DNA of 6,063 bases from Methylacidiphilaceae bacterium. Its GTDB lineage: Bacteria; Verrucomicrobiota; Verrucomicrobiia; Methylacidiphilales; Methylacidiphilaceae. The notes under the pieces are model-generated. The model was not told the origin of the DNA. It worked only from the letters and a program-made list of their open reading frames with translations, and searched no databases. Positions 1 through 6,063 of the stretch are shown here, in pieces (the stretch's first letter is position 1; each line of letters begins with the position of its first letter). A program made the translations under genes and the position numbers. The DNA is taken from assembly GCA_028687155.1 (NCBI GenBank), contig JAQUAR010000109.1:1-6063 (forward strand), read 5' to 3'.

Positions 1-615
1 TCGCTGCGCCGGGGGAGATCCGCTCCACCGGTTCAGGTATTGAAGCACGCTGCGAGCCGCGGATGATCCAGAACCCGAAGCCGCGAAGTCGACGGCCTCA
101 GATTGCGCGCCCAACGCATCGTAAAAAAAGATCTTAGGACTCCCGTTCCCCAGCGGATCGACCAGGGTCAGAACGGGAATCACGACCCCTACCCCTTGCA
201 GGGTCATGGCAAGGTTCTCCTTGAGAAGCTTGCCCACCATTCGCACCTTGGCGTCCAGCGACAAAGGCTGGAGCTGGCTCCGCCGGTAGTACTCAAAGGA
301 GTGCTGAAGAACTCGAGCAATCTCGTAGGCGGTTGCCGGAGCGCCGGCGATCGCCATGACCGTGAAGCGGTCGATCTCGATCACCTTGTCGGCCCGGTCA
401 TGAATGACCGTATGCCCCATCGTCGCCCGCCGATCTCCGGCCACGATCACTCCGTCCCGGTAATGGAAACCGAGAACGGTCGTCGATTCCAAGCCGGGGA
501 GCGGGCCGCTCCCCGCCACAACCTGCTTTCCCTCCGGAAAAAGAAGATTCCTCGACCGGAGAACGGCGAAAAAATCGCCGGTCTGCGCCCCGGAAGAGAC
601 GCCAATGGTCTCCAC
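1..615 (-). CDS. prcB: Proteasome beta subunit, 3' end cut by window edge
   Basis: Catalytic subunit of a bacterial 20S proteasome, an N-terminal threonine hydrolase that degrades tagged proteins delivered by the ARC ring. The 205 visible residues form an open frame running off base 1. Residues 1-44 would be a propeptide. The mature chain begins at Thr45 (codon 483-481) in STTVLGF, followed by VIVAGDRRAT. Counting Thr45 as position 1 puts Asp at 17 and Lys at 33 (ADK), the catalytic set of the family; AIAGAPATAYE and ENLAMTLQG follow as in actinobacterial PrcB. The residue before Thr1 is Ser rather than the usual Gly. I chose GTG at 615-613 because a GGGGAG Shine-Dalgarno sits 6 nt upstream, inside the last codons of the modifier gene. 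An alternative GTG at 519-517 with GGAGG 11 nt upstream would leave a 12-residue propeptide. Family identity is near certain; the start is less so. Confidence 0.95.
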   Translation of the reverse strand, partial: METIGVSSGAQTGDFFAVLRSRNLLFPEGKQVVAGSGPLPGLESTTVLGFHYRDGVIVAGDRRATMGHTVIHDRADKVIEIDRFTVMAIAGAPATAYEIARVLQHSFEYYRRSQLQPLSLDAKVRMVGKLLKENLAMTLQGVGVVIPVLTLVDPLGNGSPKIFFYDALGAQSEAVDFAASGSGSSAARSVLQYLNRWSGSPPAQR

Positions 616-618
616 CTT

Positions 619-798
619 CTACTCCCCGGTCCGCTGCCGATAGCGCTTCGCCTGATCGGGATCGACCTTGCGCATCCGCTTCAGGATTTCTTCGGTGTTG
701 GGGCGCTCCACTCTCGGCGCCCTAGGGCCTGGTCCCTCTCCTCCCGGACCTGGTCCGGGGGCAACTGGGTGCGTCTTCCGTACTTGTTCTGGCATCAT
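619..798 (-). CDS. ubact: UBact, Pup-like protein modifier
   Basis: Small protein tag expected to be joined through its C-terminal glutamate to substrate lysines by a PafA ligase, marking them for the ARC-proteasome. The 59 residues show a Pro/Gly-rich, probably disordered N-terminal half (PVAPGPGPGGEGPGP, residues 11-25), a likely helix at about 35-52 (NTEEILKRMRKVDPDQAKRY) and the end YRQRTGE. Actinobacterial Pup is of similar size and also ends in Gly-Glu or Gly-Gln, but with a Gly-Gly pair. The Thr-Gly-Glu end and the RMRKVDPDQAK core fit the Gram-negative UBact family. It lies between dop and prcB, where pup lies in actinobacteria. Three ATG codons stand in tandem (801-793) behind AGGAGG; I picked the middle one for its 6-nt spacing, but 60- or 58-residue products are equally coherent. 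A GTG at 822 would extend it upstream and seems unlikely. Confidence 0.92.
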   Translation of the reverse strand: MMPEQVRKTHPVAPGPGPGGEGPGPRAPRVERPNTEEILKRMRKVDPDQAKRYRQRTGE

Positions 799-804
799 CA
801 TCAC

Positions 805-810
805 CCTCCT
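805..810 (-). promoter_or_regulatory. Shine-Dalgarno of UBact modifier
   Basis: A perfect AGGAGG reads on the minus strand at 810-805. It lies 3, 6 and 9 nt before three consecutive ATG codons (801, 798, 795). It argues against the upstream in-frame GTG at 822 and sets the protein at 58-60 residues. It is the strongest ribosome binding site in the cluster, which fits a modifier needed in excess over its enzymes. Confidence 0.7.
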
Positions 811-816
811 GGGTTT

Positions 817-836
817 CGTCACCCTTTATGGTAACG
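817..836 (-). promoter_or_regulatory. RNA hairpin before UBact ribosome binding site
   Basis: On the transcribed strand CGUUACC (836-830) can pair with GGUGACG (823-817) around the 6-nt loop AUAAAG, a 7-bp stem with one G-U pair. It sits in the 52-nt dop-UBact gap and ends 6 nt before AGGAGG, leaving the binding site single stranded. There is no T-tract, so it is not a normal intrinsic terminator. An RNA processing or stabilising element is a guess; only the pairing is seen. Confidence 0.35.
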
Positions 837-850
837 CTTTCTAATAACAG

Positions 851-2401
851 TTAACTGCCGATTGGCTCCAGCTTCAACTCCTCGATCATATCCGAAACGA
901 GTTGTGCCCGATCGATCACCTCGCAGTAGTGCTCCAGATCGACGCCCGGAAAGGCCGAGGAGAGCTCGACCCGATAGGTGTGCCCTTGCCAGCGGATCGC
1001 GATGTAGTCCCACTGAACGTTGACCAGGTCTCGGGCAAACTTCTGGATACACTTGCCCCGGACGTAGGCTCGCGAGGCGTTGGGCGGCTGCTGGATCGCC
1101 CGGTAGATGTCCTCTTCCCGGGAGATTCGGCAGATCTCTCCCGCCGATTCCAACGCATAATAGAGACCCCGGTCTCGGTCGAGCAGATGATACTCCAGGT
1201 CGACGCTCTGAAGCCACGGATCATCCCACGAAAGCTTCTGCTCCTCCCGAAAGCTCTCCAGAAGTGACCGCTTGGCAACCCAGTCGAGCCGATCCCGCAA
1301 AGAATCCGGATCGCTCTGCAGCAGCTCCACGGTCTCCTTCCAGCTCTTCCAGACCGCCCGTTTTTCCGGATGGTCGAGATCGACGTAGCGGCTGACCCAA
1401 TCGGCGTAGTCATTTTGAAGCTCGGCGGCGGTCGTCGTCCCCGAGTGGGCGAGATCGATCTCCCAGCGATCGGTCTGGTCTCGGGAAATGCTCCGATGGG
1501 CGTAGAGCGGATCCGCCAGGAAGAAGCGCCGCGGAACCCGGTCGTACTGGAGTGCCTCCAGGACCAAGGCCGTTGTGCCGACCTTCAACCAGGTCGCATA
1601 CTCGGAAAGGTTGGAATCGCCCACAATGACGTGGAAGCGGCGGTAGAGCTTGGGGTTCGCGTGGGGCTCGTCCCGCGTATTGATCAGCGGCCGTCGATTC
1701 ATCGTGTCGATCCCCACGAGCTCGGTGAAGAAGTCGGCTCGCTGAGAGATTTGAAAGCCTCCGGCCAGTCCCTGATCTTCCTTTTCCCAACCCAACTTTC
1801 CCGCGCCGCCGAAGATCTGCCGCGTGACCAGAAACGCCATCATCCCCTCGACGAGGCGGTCCCAGGGAATCATCCGCGGGATCAGATAGTTCTCGTGACA
1901 GCCGTAACTGTGCCCGCCGAAGTCGGTGTTGTTCTTGTAAAGGCAGACCGTATGATTGCGCTTGCGGCTCGCCGCCCGAGCACACTCCTCCAGGATCCTT
2001 TCGCCCGCCTTGTCCTGCGCTACGAGATCGAGGAGGGTAGAGCATTCCGGAGTCGAATATTCCGGATGCGTGTGGTCATTGTAAAAGCGCGCCCCGTTAC
2101 GCAGAACGAAGTCGCTCTTGATCTCCTCGAAGCTGTAGGGCCTCTGGCGATCTTGGGAAAAGAAGTTCGCCTCATCCCCGTCCTGGCGCAGCTCCTTCGC
2201 TCGGAAGCCGCGGGCATCGCGGTGCGGATCTTCCCGCGTGTAATCCCAGAGATTGGGGCTGCCGAGCTGTGCAGCAGCCCGAACCAGATGGATCGACTCC
2301 TCGACCACGTCGACCTCCGCATTTTCCCGAACGGCAATCCCGAATTCGGTCTCCAATCCAAAATAGATCGGCCACGCTCGAATTGGTCTCTGCTTGTCCA
2401 T
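851..2401 (-). CDS. dop: Dop-type depupylase/deamidase (carboxylate-amine ligase fold)
   Basis: Member of the Dop/PafA family, related to glutamine synthetase; Dop cleaves the tag-lysine isopeptide bond and deamidates Pup forms that end in Gln. The 516 residues carry the nucleotide/Mg motif GLETEFGI (15-22), then WDY (52-54) and RDARGF (61-66) in the segment where Dop has its characteristic insertion (Dop-loop). Next come NGARFYNDHTHPEYS (102-116, with Asp109 at the catalytic Asp position), KNNTDFGGHSYGCHENYL (156-173), SQRAD (219-223) and NTRDEPHAN (241-249). WDY, RDARGF, DHTHPEYS and the LSW...VDLEY...GLYYAL tail are Dop traits. KNNTD and SYGCHENYLI read more like PafA. Length is close to actinobacterial Dop. 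The start is ATG 2401-2399 with GGAGGAG upstream; an in-frame TTG at 2443 overlapping the arc stop would add 14 residues and is unlikely. The 38-nt gap from arc implies cotranscription. Confidence 0.92.
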   Translation of the reverse strand: MDKQRPIRAWPIYFGLETEFGIAVRENAEVDVVEESIHLVRAAAQLGSPNLWDYTREDPHRDARGFRAKELRQDGDEANFFSQDRQRPYSFEEIKSDFVLRNGARFYNDHTHPEYSTPECSTLLDLVAQDKAGERILEECARAASRKRNHTVCLYKNNTDFGGHSYGCHENYLIPRMIPWDRLVEGMMAFLVTRQIFGGAGKLGWEKEDQGLAGGFQISQRADFFTELVGIDTMNRRPLINTRDEPHANPKLYRRFHVIVGDSNLSEYATWLKVGTTALVLEALQYDRVPRRFFLADPLYAHRSISRDQTDRWEIDLAHSGTTTAAELQNDYADWVSRYVDLDHPEKRAVWKSWKETVELLQSDPDSLRDRLDWVAKRSLLESFREEQKLSWDDPWLQSVDLEYHLLDRDRGLYYALESAGEICRISREEDIYRAIQQPPNASRAYVRGKCIQKFARDLVNVQWDYIAIRWQGHTYRVELSSAFPGVDLEHYCEVIDRAQLVSDMIEELKLEPIGS

Positions 2402-2410
2402 GGCGTCGCG

Positions 2411-2419
2411 CTCTCCTCC
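2411..2419 (-). promoter_or_regulatory. Shine-Dalgarno of dop
   Basis: GGAGGAGAG reads on the minus strand at 2419-2411. Its GGAGAG part (2416-2411) ends 9 nt before ATG 2401-2399; the GGAGGAG register ends 11 nt before it. No comparable site precedes the longer TTG-initiated frame at 2443 or the out-of-frame ATG at 2439, so it decides the dop start. Confidence 0.6.
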
Positions 2420-2439
2420 GGTCTCTTGTTCCCGAACAT

Positions 2440-4095
2440 TCAAACGATCTGACGCACCGTCGCTTCCTCCCTCCGGGCCACGGGGGCCAGCCGAACGACA
2501 TTCTGCGGATCGTAGTCGACGAGCTTCAGCCAGTCTTCGGTAATGTCGGACGGGGGGAAGATATCATTTTCAAGATACTCAATATCGAGTGCGGTCAAAA
2601 GATCCTCCAGCCCCAAGCCGTGATTCGACGGATCGGAGATCGCCCGCTTGATCGCCAGCTCCTTGGACCGCTCGACGATAGAAGCGATGATCGCTCCGCT
2701 GATGAGGTCGCCCCGATAGAGATATTCCTTTCTCCCGCTCCGAAAAGTGACTTCCAAAAACCGGTTCTGCTCCGCCCGGGCGAACTGGGCGTCCAACACC
2801 CCTTCAATCAGGATGTCGATCGCCTTTCCGCGATCTTCGCCTGCCTGCTCCAAGAGACCCGCCGCGTAGGGGAGATCCTGCTCCAGGTAGATCCGGTAGA
2901 TTTCGGCCGAGCCCGCGCGATCCGGCCGATTGACCTTGATCTTCCGATCGATCCGGCCCGGCCGAAGAATGGCGGGATCGATCAAGTCCGCGCGATTGGA
3001 GGCAAGGATGAGCACCACCTCCCGCATCGACTCGATGCCATCCATCTCGGCGCAAAACATGGGAACGAGAGTATTGAGGATACTATTGAACCGCCCTGCG
3101 CGTCGGGTACCCAAGATCGATTCCGCCTCGTCGATGAAGATGAAGGGGAGAAAACCTTCGCGTGCCAACTCCCGAGCCTGCTCGAAGAGCTCGCGCACCT
3201 GCCGCTCTGATTCCCCAACCCACATGTTCAGAATCTCCGGGCCCTTCACATGGAGGAAGAACTCCTTCCTCTCCTCTCCGGTCTCTTCTTGAAGCTTGCG
3301 AGTCAAGTTGTAGGCGGTCGCCTTCCCCAAGAGGGTCTTCCCGCATCCGGGGGGCCCGTGGAGCAAAAATCCTTTCGGAACATGGTGGTGATACTTGGCG
3401 AAGAGGTCCGCATGGAGGAAAGGCAACTCCACGGCGTCCCGTATCGCGGCGACAGCCCCTTTCTGGCCACCCACCTTCTCCCAGGGAAGCTCCGGAACTT
3501 GATCGAGCAGCCGGTGCCTGGTCTTCGAGGTCGCCACGACCTCCAGAGCAACCCGGGAGGAGCCGTCCACCCGAATTTCGAGCCCTGCCTTGATCCGCTC
3601 TTTGGCCAGAGGAGTCGAACGAATCACCACGAAGCTTCCTCCCACTCCTTCGTGGCCTACGCGAAGGCGGTTGTCCGGCAAGACGTCGACCACCTTCACC
3701 ACGGGGCCGGAAAAGTCGAAGCCAAGATCTCCGACGACCGCAAAGGCCTCGTTGAGCAGCACTCTCGTTCCGACCAGGAGCGTCTCATGACCAAGCCGCG
3801 GATCGATGCTGCAGTAGAACTCGGTTCCGCCCTGCACCACTAGCGCGATCTCTTTCTTGGGCAGGCCGAGAAGGGTACCGACCCGATTCGCCGGGGCGGA
3901 GAGCTTCTCCACCGCCTCGTTCAGCTTTTCCAAAGCCTGGTGAGCCTGCTCACCCGTCTCCTCCAGCTCGGCGACTCGGCGCCGAAGATAGAAGAATGCC
4001 TCCCGCGAGACCGCGTCGAAGGAAAGCGATTGTCCGATCAGGTCGACGACCTGCAAGGCGGAAGCCGACTCTAAGTTTTCGAAAGACGTAGGCAT
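2440..4095 (-). CDS. arc: ARC/Mpa proteasomal AAA+ unfoldase
   Basis: Hexameric ring ATPase that binds the tag, unfolds the substrate and threads it into the 20S core. The 551 residues show an N-terminal helical/coiled-coil stretch (about 29-66, AFFYLRRRVAELEETGEQ), which binds Pup in Mpa. The tandem OB region follows (about 70-195), then one AAA domain: Walker A GPPGCGKT (247-254), pore-loop region KGPEILNMWVGESER (284-298), Walker B FIFIDEAE (318-325), sensor 1 ASN (365-367) and arginine-finger segment LRPGRID (377-383). NRFLEVTFRSG (444-454) and a C-terminal helical part match Mpa. It ends TVRQIV, without the Gly-Gln-Tyr-Leu tail by which Mpa/ARC docks on the core. ATG 4095 is chosen for GGAGGGGAG just before it; ATG 4128 and TTG 4164 in frame lack a binding site. 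It stands 78 nt after pyrF and 38 nt before dop. Confidence 0.95.
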   Translation of the reverse strand: MPTSFENLESASALQVVDLIGQSLSFDAVSREAFFYLRRRVAELEETGEQAHQALEKLNEAVEKLSAPANRVGTLLGLPKKEIALVVQGGTEFYCSIDPRLGHETLLVGTRVLLNEAFAVVGDLGFDFSGPVVKVVDVLPDNRLRVGHEGVGGSFVVIRSTPLAKERIKAGLEIRVDGSSRVALEVVATSKTRHRLLDQVPELPWEKVGGQKGAVAAIRDAVELPFLHADLFAKYHHHVPKGFLLHGPPGCGKTLLGKATAYNLTRKLQEETGEERKEFFLHVKGPEILNMWVGESERQVRELFEQARELAREGFLPFIFIDEAESILGTRRAGRFNSILNTLVPMFCAEMDGIESMREVVLILASNRADLIDPAILRPGRIDRKIKVNRPDRAGSAEIYRIYLEQDLPYAAGLLEQAGEDRGKAIDILIEGVLDAQFARAEQNRFLEVTFRSGRKEYLYRGDLISGAIIASIVERSKELAIKRAISDPSNHGLGLEDLLTALDIEYLENDIFPPSDITEDWLKLVDYDPQNVVRLAPVARREEATVRQIV

Positions 4096-4173: not shown

Positions 4174-4881
4174 CTAGGCGAGGCCGCTCCCCCCTTGAAG
4201 CAGATTCCGCACCAAGTTGACCGGATCCTCTGCTTCCAGCACCGGACGGCCGACCACGATGTGGGTCGCTCCTAGGGCAAACGCCTCCCGAGGCGAGACG
4301 GTGCGTCTCTGGTCGTCCACTTCTCGCTGCGTGAGCCGGATCCCCGGGGTCACCACCACTTCCGGTCGTATGCCCGCTTCCCGCAGGGAGGAGAGCTCGC
4401 GGGCGGAGCAGACGATGCCGCGAATCCCGCAGTCCCCGGCAAGCGCCGCAAGGGCGCAAACGCGTTCGGAAAGGCTTCCGCTCACGCCGACCTCCGAGAG
4501 ATCCGCCTCCTCGAGGCTCGTCAGGACCGTCACCGCGAGAATCCGGGTCTTGCTGCCCGCAGCCGCCTCCGAGGCAGCCGTCAGCATTCTCCTTCCGCCC
4601 AGGGCATGCACGGTCAGGTAGCCGACGTCCATCTGCACGCAGGCTCGGACGGCTCGCTCGACGGTGGCCGGAATATCGTGAAACTTCAGATCCAGAAAGA
4701 CCTGCGCGCCCAGGGAACGGATCTCCTCCACCACTTTTGGCCCGCCGCGCAGGAAGAGTTGACTTCCCACCTTGAACCAACTGACATAGTTGCGAAGTCG
4801 GCGCGCCAGAAGGAGCGCATTCTCCACATCGAAGAGATCCAAGGCCACAATGAGCCCATCCGCTAAGGGCAGGGAGGACAC
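4174..4881 (-). CDS. pyrF: Orotidine 5'-phosphate decarboxylase
   Basis: Last step of UMP synthesis: decarboxylates orotidine 5'-phosphate in the cytoplasm. The 235-residue TIM barrel has IVALDL (11-16), WFKVGSQLF (35-43), the catalytic DLKFHDIP (64-71, with Asp64, Lys66 and Asp69), TVHALGG (90-96), VTPGIR (177-182) and the phosphate-binding VVGRPVLEA (209-217). It belongs to the 230-240-residue bacterial PyrF type. The start is uncertain. GTG 4881-4879 gives the usual length but has no clear Shine-Dalgarno; the frame stays open to TTG 4920 and ATG 4935 (253 residues). All of these starts lie beyond the first codon of the divergent ispE at 4850, so the two 5' ends overlap unless ispE begins later. 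arc follows 78 nt downstream on the same strand, so readthrough into the proteasome cluster is possible, though no functional link is evident. Confidence 0.93.
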   Translation of the reverse strand: MSSLPLADGLIVALDLFDVENALLLARRLRNYVSWFKVGSQLFLRGGPKVVEEIRSLGAQVFLDLKFHDIPATVERAVRACVQMDVGYLTVHALGGRRMLTAASEAAAGSKTRILAVTVLTSLEEADLSEVGVSGSLSERVCALAALAGDCGIRGIVCSARELSSLREAGIRPEVVVTPGIRLTQREVDDQRRTVSPREAFALGATHIVVGRPVLEAEDPVNLVRNLLQGGSGLA

Positions 4882-5758
4882 TTCAACAGGTATTGAACTC
4901 TTCGCTCCGGCGAAAATCAACCTCGACCTGCGCATTCTCGGCCGCCGCTCCGACGGGTTTCATGAGCTCTCGACGCGGATGGCTCCCATCTCGCTTGGCG
5001 ACCGACTCCGGATCGCCTCACATCCCGGACCGGAGATCTTCTTTCGATGCGACGATCCGCTCCTCCCCGCGGGAGAAGACAATCTGGTCTGCCGGGCGGT
5101 GCGCCTCTTCGCCGACTCGTTCGGCCTCCTCCGCGGCTTGACGATCTCTTTGAAAAAGAGGCTGCCCGCGGGAGCCGGCTTGGGGGGAGGCAGCAGCGAC
5201 GCCGCCGCCGCCCTCCTGGCCCTCCGCAGGCTCCTCGGCTATCCCGCTTCCCGCGACGCGCTCCTGCCCCTGGCCGCTACCCTGGGCAGCGATGTCCCCT
5301 TCTTTCTGGTCCAGAAACCAGCGCTCTGCCACGGCCGAGGGGAGATTGTCTCCCCGGAGCCTTGGCTCGGTCCGCGGCACGGACTCCTCCTCTTCCCAGG
5401 ATTTCCCGTTCCGACTCCGTGGGCCTACCAAGCCTACGCCCGGAGTCCTCGGCCGGGGGAAGAACGCGGCACTCCGCCCTGGGGGCCGATTCGGAACGAT
5501 CTGGAGCCCGCCGTCTTTGAGAAGTATTTGTGGCTCGCCGCAGCCCGCAACTGGCTTCAAGAGGAAGCGGGTGCCAACCTTGCCATGATGAGCGGAAGCG
5601 GAAGCTCGGTGTTTGGTCTTTGGGAAAGCCGTCCCGGTCCGGAGCTCGTGGTGCGGGCGCAGCTCTTCTTTGGAGCGGAAGCCTGGATCCGCACCTTTTC
5701 CATCCTCAGCGAGGAAAGCTCGCAAGAGCTCCAAGACCTCCCAGATCCGAACCGTTGA
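4850..5758 (+). CDS. ispE: 4-diphosphocytidyl-2-C-methyl-D-erythritol kinase
   Basis: GHMP kinase of the non-mevalonate (MEP) isoprenoid pathway; phosphorylates CDP-methylerythritol using ATP. The 302 residues contain APAKINLDL (19-27), the substrate-side GRRSDGFHEL (31-40), the glycine-rich ATP loop PAGAGLGGGSSDAA (106-119), GSDVPFF (146-152, with Asp148 at the catalytic Asp position), RNDLEPAV (215-222) and the third GHMP motif MSGSGSSVFG (247-256). All are intact, so the enzyme should be active. ATG 4850 is the nearest standard in-frame start before APAKIN and has only a weak AAGG upstream. It gives about 14 extra N-terminal residues and overlaps pyrF on the other strand by 32 bp. A rare ATT start at 4892 would fit the usual IspE N-terminus but sits 14 nt after its nearest GGGAGG. 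The next in-frame ATG (4979) would destroy the first motif. Confidence 0.93.
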   Translation: MSPSAKGREDTSTGIELFAPAKINLDLRILGRRSDGFHELSTRMAPISLGDRLRIASHPGPEIFFRCDDPLLPAGEDNLVCRAVRLFADSFGLLRGLTISLKKRLPAGAGLGGGSSDAAAALLALRRLLGYPASRDALLPLAATLGSDVPFFLVQKPALCHGRGEIVSPEPWLGPRHGLLLFPGFPVPTPWAYQAYARSPRPGEERGTPPWGPIRNDLEPAVFEKYLWLAAARNWLQEEAGANLAMMSGSGSSVFGLWESRPGPELVVRAQLFFGAEAWIRTFSILSEESSQELQDLPDPNR

Positions 5759-5951: not shown

Positions 5952-6063
5952 ATGCCAAATTATACGTATTTGATTGTCGGCGGCGGAATGACGGCCGATG
6001 CCGCCGTCCGCGGCATTCGGGAAATCGACCCGGATGGATCCATTGGCGTGCTGACGACGGAAC
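5952..6063 (+). CDS. FAD-dependent pyridine-nucleotide oxidoreductase, N-terminal part
   Basis: Only the first 37 codons are in the window. They read MPNYTYLIVGGGMTADAA and continue to GSIGVLTTE. A beta strand, a GxGxxA dinucleotide-binding turn (GGGMTA), a helix (DAAVRGIREID) and a second strand are the opening of an FAD-binding Rossmann domain. The MTADAA-V-GIRE wording is typical of ferredoxin-reductase-like flavoproteins of the pyridine nucleotide-disulfide oxidoreductase family; the electron partner cannot be told from this fragment. The ATG is fixed by the position of the GGG motif about 10 residues in. There is no Shine-Dalgarno directly upstream; the 28 nt before the start are almost all pyrimidine or A. 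The gene follows a 193-nt intergenic region, so it probably has its own promoter rather than being read with ispE. Confidence 0.8.
   Translation, partial: MPNYTYLIVGGGMTADAAVRGIREIDPDGSIGVLTTE

What the first reader, a model, noticed from the sequence alone, without database searches (positions are those of the whole stretch)
1..4095. Four-gene UBact-proteasome cluster (arc, dop, UBact, prcB) outside the classical Pup setting
Seen: an ARC-type ATPase, a Dop-type enzyme, a 59-residue modifier ending in RTGE and a proteasome beta subunit with a Thr1/Asp17/Lys33 set, all on one strand with gaps of 38, 52 and 3 nt. Known: Pup-proteasome systems were defined in actinobacteria, and UBact is the variant reported in several Gram-negative phyla, with far less biochemistry. 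Inferred: this is a complete, functional tagging and degradation system whose prcA and pafA lie left of the window.
Basis: partly seen in the sequence, partly recalled or inferred. Interest (0 to 1): 0.8.

Follow-up and report, generated by a model that had tools for sequence, protein, structure and literature searches.

The report
UBact proteasome with different docking tail
This DNA, from a close relative of acid-loving methane-eating bacteria, carries part of a known protein-tagging and protein-shredding gene set (UBact-proteasome) whose motor protein ends in a different tip from the well-studied Pup version, and so would likely plug into its shredder through a different fit.

Summary
The window is one whole 6,063-nt contig of a draft Methylacidimicrobium-type genome with arc, dop, UBact and a prcB cut off by the contig end. 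The inference holds: pafA and the 3' part of prcA lie on another contig (C181), and all 12 other genomes searched in the family keep UBact-prcB-prcA-pafA-ffh unbroken. The cluster itself is not news: proteasome and Pup-like genes were reported in Methylacidiphilum in 2008, and databases already name UBact in this genus. What I found beyond that is how the ATPase probably meets its core. Pup-type ATPases end with a penultimate tyrosine (27 of 27 here); UBact-type ones never do (0 of 93), mostly ending in two aliphatic residues. In the alpha subunit the residues that contact that tyrosine differ too, while the lysine and aspartate that hold the tail stay. Charges at the second ATPase-core contact are swapped. 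Fourteen of 61 sampled Nitrospirota genomes encode both systems, one on a single 4.3-Mb contig, and each ATPase keeps its own tail. I read this as a second docking code, predicted to be insulated from the first. Binding and tagging are untested.

The parts
1..615 (-). prcB, proteasome beta subunit, first 205 codons; cut by the contig end. Propeptide 44 aa, mature Thr at codon 45
   Evidence: PF00227 83.4 bits, TIGR03690 121.6 bits (under its cut-off of 191.9; gene truncated); aligned to mature beta subunits
619..801 (-). UBact, 58-60 aa modifier ending RTGE (three tandem ATG starts at 801, 798, 795)
   Evidence: PF20513 82.5 bits, NF033388 88.7 bits; sequence
851..2401 (-). dop, predicted deconjugase (Dop-type, with the Dop-loop stretch WDYTREDPHRDARGF)
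   Evidence: TIGR03688 449 bits; PDB Dop 4b0r E 9.4e-114; UBact-type Dop clade
2440..4095 (-). arc, proteasome ATPase (OB and AAA domains by profile; coiled-coil, beta-grasp and C-terminal tail by alignment to Mpa)
   Evidence: TIGR03689 445 bits; Mpa 7ljf E 2.4e-100
2443..2448 (-). codons of the last two ARC residues (Ile-Val), the predicted docking tip, where Pup-type ARC has Tyr-Leu or Tyr-Phe
   Evidence: sequence; comparison
2725..2742 (-). ARC beta-grasp hairpin residues 452-457 (RSGRKE), predicted contact with the core's H0 helix
   Evidence: Mpa D504/K505 contact in PMC8755798 (passages)
3211..3225 (-). ARC pore loop MWVGE; Trp in all 93 UBact-type, Tyr in all 27 Pup-type rows
4174..4935 (-). 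pyrF, upstream anchor of the conserved neighbourhood (start not settled)
   Evidence: NF001273 254.6 bits over cut-off; synteny
4790..5758 (+). ispE (start not settled), divergent anchor
   Evidence: TIGR00154 187.5 bits over cut-off; synteny

Best explanation
The window holds arc, dop, UBact and a truncated prcB of a UBact-proteasome locus, the system is predicted to tag proteins with UBact and degrade them, and its ATPase likely docks on the core through an aliphatic C-terminal tip instead of the penultimate tyrosine of Pup-type ATPases. Inferred by homology: PafA (on contig C181) joins the side-chain carboxylate of UBact's terminal Glu to target lysines, with no deamidation needed because the gene already encodes Glu. 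Dop removes it. ARC binds UBact on its coiled coils, unfolds the target through the MWVG pore loops and threads it into the PrcA/PrcB core, where Thr1 cuts. Shown by sequence: the tip, the core pocket and the second (hairpin to H0 helix) contact differ as a set from the Pup type and are conserved, with few exceptions, within the UBact type. Inferred: the tail's carboxylate still pairs with the invariant alpha lysine, while its aliphatic side chains fill a pocket whose tyrosine-binding Arg and Glu became mostly variable and Ile/Leu/Met; the swapped charges make each ATPase prefer its own core. In the window's own genome the pocket's N-terminal half lies in the unassembled gap, so it is taken from relatives.
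Against: No binding, tagging or degradation was tested. The tail-pocket match between the two types rests on one ancient split, and the IE/Arg match on one lineage, so these are few independent events. In 6 of the 13 dual genomes where both PrcA could be read, the Arg26 place is basic in both systems, so there only the tip, the Glu119 place, the hairpin and H0 tell the types apart; and the seven IE tails are not aliphatic at the last place. The alpha subunits share only about 24% identity with M. tuberculosis PrcA, so single pocket positions could be off by one. Other exceptions: one Lys at the Arg26 place with an II tail (L174), three SI tails and one WS tail (L075, perhaps a sequence error), 2 hairpins and 1 H0 helix of the other sign. 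'Insulated' is inferred from charge and residue pattern only. The window genome's own PrcA N-terminus is not assembled.
Confidence: 0.68

Rival explanations
1. An ordinary Pup-like system: the ATPase docks just as Mpa does, the C-terminal difference is tolerated drift, and no separate docking code exists.
For: Same gene families in the same order in both types, for instance the two loci of G419 (in L188 and L189 Pup is displaced); Lys52 and Asp144 of the pocket are kept; the Arg26 place is basic in both systems in 6 of 13 dual genomes; PMC6017811 notes that other activators (11S, Cpa) lack the tyrosine and still bind (passages).
Against: Drift would hardly keep aliphatic tips in 82 of 93 across phyla, nor change the Arg26 and Glu119 places and the hairpin and H0 charges with them; the GQYL motif is required in Mpa (PMC8142254, PMC12288473; passages) and its penultimate tyrosine is called the main binding determinant (PMC8755798).
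Confidence: 0.25
2. UBact tagging signals without degradation, and ARC works apart from the core.
For: Some Verrucomicrobiota and Poribacteria loci have arc and dop with no UBact or prcB found within the held flanks; Pup/PafA loci without linked proteasome genes are described (PMC2588565, passages).
Against: prcB and prcA are in the cluster in all 12 other family genomes searched; prcB keeps Thr1, Asp17 and Lys33; PrcA keeps the pocket Lys in all 76 rows.
Confidence: 0.05
3. The C181 PafA-like enzyme is not the ligase but a second deconjugase.
For: Its best solved relatives are Dop structures; NCBIfam PafA and Dop scores nearly tie (258 and 251 bits, both far under cut-off); in the trees UBact-type PafA does not group with Pup-type PafA (99; 96/99).
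Against: It lacks the Dop-loop stretch and has PafA's length and gene position; one joint PafA clade is not rejected (AU p 0.15); without it the genome has no ligase, since only two PF03136 genes were found.
Confidence: 0.07
4. The two systems seen in one Nitrospirota genome are a binning artefact.
For: Most of these genomes are in many contigs; the titles behind G419 and G420 say MAG.
Against: G476 has both loci on one 4,317,083-base contig, and the pattern repeats in 14 of 61 sampled genomes.
Confidence: 0.03

Closest known systems
UBact system (PF20513 / NF033388), as already named in Methylacidimicrobium sp. AP8 and Methylacidiphilum infernorum Minf_1282
   Same: Modifier profile, RTG[EQ] end, gene order arc-dop-UBact-prcB-prcA-pafA in relatives
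   Different: Nothing in kind; this is one more member
Pup-proteasome system of Actinomycetota (Mpa/ARC, Dop, Pup, PrcB, PrcA, PafA)
   Same: The enzyme and core gene families; alpha fold; pocket Lys and Asp; Thr1 catalytic set
   Different: Modifier family; ATPase tip without the penultimate Tyr; Arg26 and Glu119 places; charge-swapped hairpin and H0 helix; pore loop Trp for an aromatic of another kind
Pup-type systems of Nitrospirota (ARC ending GHYL or GHYF)
   Same: Same gene families, often in the same genomes as a UBact locus
   Different: Actinobacterial-style tip, pocket and gate; Pup, not UBact
Cpa and 11S/PA28 activators, which bind cores without the penultimate tyrosine (PMC6017811, passages)
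   Same: Precedent for a core activator lacking HbYX
   Different: Not ARC orthologs (recalled); no tagging system of their own

Membership tests
UBact (PF20513, NF033388) | Profile match over the curated cut-off | tested here: met
   82.5 (27.8) and 88.7 (35) bits
UBact (PF20513, NF033388) | C-terminal RTG[EQ] | tested here: met
   RTGE; 109 Q and 11 E among the 120 listed of 384 relatives
UBact (PF20513, NF033388) | Linked to arc, dop, prcB, prcA, pafA | tested here: met
   Four in the window; pafA and part of prcA on C181; unbroken in 12 of 12 other family genomes from UBact to ffh
UBact (PF20513, NF033388) | Covalent attachment to lysines | not testable with these tools
   needs mass spectrometry or enzymology
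Pup (PF05639) | Match to the Pup profile | tested here: not met
   Pfam scan at E up to 0.1 lists only UBact
Mpa/ARC proteasome ATPase of the Pup type (TIGR03689) | Score over the equivalog cut-off | tested here: not met
   445.4 against 504.75 bits
Mpa/ARC proteasome ATPase of the Pup type (TIGR03689) | C-terminal motif with penultimate Tyr (GQYL) | tested here: not met
   ends RQIV; 0 of 93 UBact-type, 27 of 27 Pup-type
Dop (TIGR03688) | Score over the equivalog cut-off | tested here: not met
   449 against 492.3 bits; Dop is still the better of the two models, PafA 366.8
Dop (TIGR03688) | Dop-loop stretch and conserved catalytic region | tested here: met
   alignment to 4b0r
PafA ligase (TIGR03686), C181 gene | Score over the equivalog cut-off | tested here: not met
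   258.3 against 551.3 bits
PafA ligase (TIGR03686), C181 gene | Groups with Pup-type PafA in a tree | tested here: inconclusive
   free trees keep them apart, AU p 0.15 does not reject one clade
20S proteasome beta (PF00227) | Profile match and Thr1/Asp17/Lys33 | tested here: met
20S proteasome alpha, in the nearest relatives | Alpha fold with N-terminal H0 helix | tested here: met

The most novel reading that the evidence does not exclude
Bacteria have two mutually insulated proteasome docking codes. Pup-type ATPases use a Tyr-Leu tip with a negative hairpin on a positive gate helix; UBact-type ATPases use an aliphatic tip with a positive hairpin on a negative gate helix. The insulation lets two complete tagging-and-degradation systems run side by side in one cell, as in many Nitrospirota.
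Probability: 0.5. Interest if true: 0.75.

Novelty: new variant of a known kind. Interest (0 to 1): 0.5.

Why it matters
The cluster alone is a further UBact member in a genus where databases already name it. The docking difference matters because a penultimate tyrosine is described as the shared feature of proteasome regulatory ATPases (PMC8755798, passages), and robust degradation by the full-length mycobacterial pair has not been reconstituted (PMC8142254, passages). UBact systems would be a natural test of which contact opens the gate, and genomes with both systems offer paired controls inside one cell. If the codes are orthogonal, they also give two independent degradation machines for laboratory bacteria.

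Tried and rejected
Rejected: 'no prcA in the genome'. PF00227 found only prcB in the draft, but the missing half of prcA explains it: the C181 fragment alone matches no Pfam or NCBIfam model, while the full-length PrcA of G006 does, though under the curated cut-offs.

Rejected as a claim: independent origin of the UBact ligase. The trees put Dop and PafA of each system together (99 in the quick tree; 96/99 in the careful one), but a single PafA clade is not rejected (p 0.15).

Led nowhere: Rfam on the window and C181, 0 matches; local profile search for a hidden UBact in loci that lacked one, best E 0.16; the Streptomyces plasmid ARC piece (L129) covers only 58% of the query and was not used; the Tsukamurella plasmid arc was not fetched.

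Rows dropped: L024-L041 were left out of family-wide counts because their genomes partly repeat the named loci. L096 and L103 were dropped as second copies of L140 and L141 (still count them: 95 ARC, 78 PrcA rows). ARCs running off a contig, PrcA rows under 190 aa and PrcA rows whose start could not be set within 3 codons were not counted. The tree took one in three rows of L071-L122; one search used 64 hand-picked rows. The named loci are the best 80 of 183 found.

Not in print, by these searches only: UBact, Pup/Nitrospira/proteasome/Verrucomicrobia, Methylacidiphilum+proteasome, GQYL+proteasome, pupylation+Verrucomicrobia, Leptospirillum+proteasome+Pup, bacterial proteasome/penultimate tyrosine/Nitrospir, PafE/20S/K52/R26 (86), (2,050 papers, 5 listed), Nitrospir+pupylation. 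I saw listings, and passages of 14 papers; in PMC7203096 the word UBact was not in the held part. The 2017 UBact paper (Lehmann and colleagues) is recalled and was not seen; it may already report Nitrospirota with both modifiers.
Full report
What is there. The window is the whole of contig C176 (6,063 nt) of a draft genome of 1,885,308 bases in 336 contigs, 83.55% complete. Reading the minus strand: pyrF, arc, dop, UBact, prcB, the last cut at base 1; ispE runs the other way. Nearest named relative: Methylacidimicrobium tartarophylax, 98% identity over ARC. The lifestyle of that genus (acidophilic methanotroph) is from general knowledge.

The missing half. PF03136 finds a second gene in the genome, on contig C181, 4091-5383. 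Next to it, running off that contig's end, is a 159-codon open frame that matches the 3' part of prcA in relatives. A 2,201-nt piece of genome G006 matches C181's end with its bases 1-735 (92%) and C176's start with 1554-2201 (94%), so about 818 nt are unassembled. In all 12 other genomes held for the family (G001-G012), UBact-prcB-prcA-pafA-ffh is unbroken; arc is present in 11 of the 12 stretches and ispE in 10, the stretches of the rest ending at a contig end.

All or nothing. Among 40 genomes (own plus relatives up to the order), 19 carry UBact over the cut-off, and the same 19 carry Dop/PafA and a proteasome subunit. The other 21 have none of the three over the cut-offs; one of them, G029, has a sub-threshold UBact match of 25 bits inside a 599-codon frame, most likely chance. 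In a phylum-wide draw, 10 of 387 genomes had UBact over the cut-off.

Known or not. Proteasome subunits were reported in Methylacidiphilum infernorum in 2008 (PMC2474590, passage), and Pup orthologs in Methylacidiphilum, Nitrospirae and others the same year (PMC2588565, passages). Protein databases name UBact in Methylacidimicrobium sp. AP8 and for Minf_1282. Proteasome subunits of Gram-negative bacteria were noted as a separate subcluster (PMC5666114, passages). So the cluster is a member of a known family.

Terminal residue. The window's UBact ends in Glu. A sister genus (G008) ends in Gln, and of the 120 listed database relatives 109 end in Gln and 11 in Glu. Both fit the published rule that Glu is used directly and Gln after deamidation (PMC2588565). 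With Glu encoded, Dop's deamidase step should be dispensable here; this is inference.

The ATPase tip. In mycobacteria, Mpa binds the core with a C-terminal GQYL motif whose penultimate tyrosine is its key feature (PMC8755798, PMC8142254, PMC12288473; passages). The window's ARC ends RQIV. Of 93 distinct UBact-type ARCs with a complete 3' end, from Verrucomicrobiota, Poribacteria, Nitrospirota and single genomes labelled otherwise, none has the penultimate tyrosine: 82 end [VI][VI], 7 IE, 3 SI, 1 WS. Of the 120 listed relatives in the protein database, 117 end [VI][VI] and none has the tyrosine; these are the closest kin, 61-98% identical. Controls read in the same way: 27 of 27 Pup-type ARCs (26 Nitrospirota, 1 Nonomuraea) end GHYL (25), GHYF (1) or GQYL (1).

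The pocket. Published contacts of GQYL in the alpha ring are Arg26 and Glu119 (to the tyrosine), Lys52 (to the carboxylate) and Asp144 (to the backbone) (PMC9599533, PMC11953334; passages). By alignment (for the numbering, for columns), Lys52 is kept in 76 of 76 UBact-type and 24 of 24 Pup-type PrcA; Asp144 in 75 of 76 and 24 of 24. The tyrosine partners differ: the Arg26 place is Lys or Arg in 24 of 24 Pup-type but only 8 of 76 UBact-type (7 Arg; the eighth, a Lys, is listed); the Glu119 place is Glu in 24 of 24 but Ile, Leu or Met in 76 of 76. So in most rows the part of the pocket that would read a tyrosine is gone, and the part that holds any C-terminus remains. Within the UBact type the seven IE-tailed ARCs are exactly the seven loci with Arg at the Arg26 place; all seven sit in one lineage, so this is one event, but a pointed one.

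Two systems in one genome. Of 61 Nitrospirota genomes drawn, 14 carry both a Pup-type ARC (over 700 bits) and a second-type ARC (349-472 bits), 11 only the first, 1 only the second, 35 neither at E up to 1e-100. All 15 second-type loci hold UBact and the full six genes, and all 14 dual genomes also have Pup. A fifteenth dual case, G420, came from another route; no Pup was found there, its Pup-type contig being short. G476 carries both loci on one 4,317,083-base contig. In all 15 the tails keep to type. PrcA could be compared in 13 of the 15, since two Pup-type copies were not readable; in all 13 the Glu119 place and the sign or size of H0 charge differ, but the Arg26 place is basic in both systems in 6 of the 13. 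Separate tails are what one would expect if each ATPase must find its own core, though no binding was tested.

Ligase question. The C181 gene is called PafA from its place, length and lack of the Dop loop. Profiles barely separate it (258 against 251 bits). In a 64-row tree the Pup-type Dop and PafA group together against the UBact-type pair (96/99), but a single PafA clade costs 17.7 log units and is not rejected (AU p 0.15). I leave it open.

How it works, in order. Shown: genes, order, conserved residues, fold prediction. Inferred: ligation of UBact by PafA, removal by Dop, capture by ARC, threading, cutting at Thr1. Proposed here and untested: docking by an aliphatic tip held by the alpha lysine, with gate opening through the H0-hairpin contact, insulated from the Pup type.

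Noticed in passing
window 5954-6063 (+): Start of a protein beginning MPNYTYLIVGGGMTADAAVRGIREIDPDG, which looks like a flavin or NAD(P)-binding reductase; cut by the contig end, no family match for the short piece.
   Followed up: no
G430, G439, G448, G457, G464, G471, G476, G481: In eight Nitrospirota genomes the only Pup match lies about 40 kb or more from the Pup-type arc gene or on another contig; in the two such loci printed (L188, L189) dop and prcB stay beside arc.
   Followed up: partly
L061, L062, L066, L069, L108, L115: Loci with UBact-type arc and dop but no UBact, prcB, prcA or pafA found within the held flank: orphan ATPase-deconjugase pairs, or parts moved elsewhere.
   Followed up: partly
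Dop/PafA trees: UBact-type PafA does not join Pup-type PafA in the free tree; either a second origin of the ligase or a tree artefact. One clade is not rejected.
   Followed up: partly
window 622-624 (last codon of UBact) and relatives: UBact's last residue flips between Glu and Gln among close genera (Glu here, Gln in G008 and in G025, G036 and G039 of family f9), so need for deamidation would change over short times.
   Followed up: partly
G002:C130:22805-23380: A second, weak PF00227 match (20.8 bits; 23.9 with its neighbours) away from the cluster in one same-genus genome; nature unknown.
   Followed up: no
window 3211-3225: ARC pore-loop aromatic is Trp in all 93 UBact-type and Tyr in all 27 Pup-type rows; possible effect on gripping or unfolding strength not explored.
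   Followed up: no
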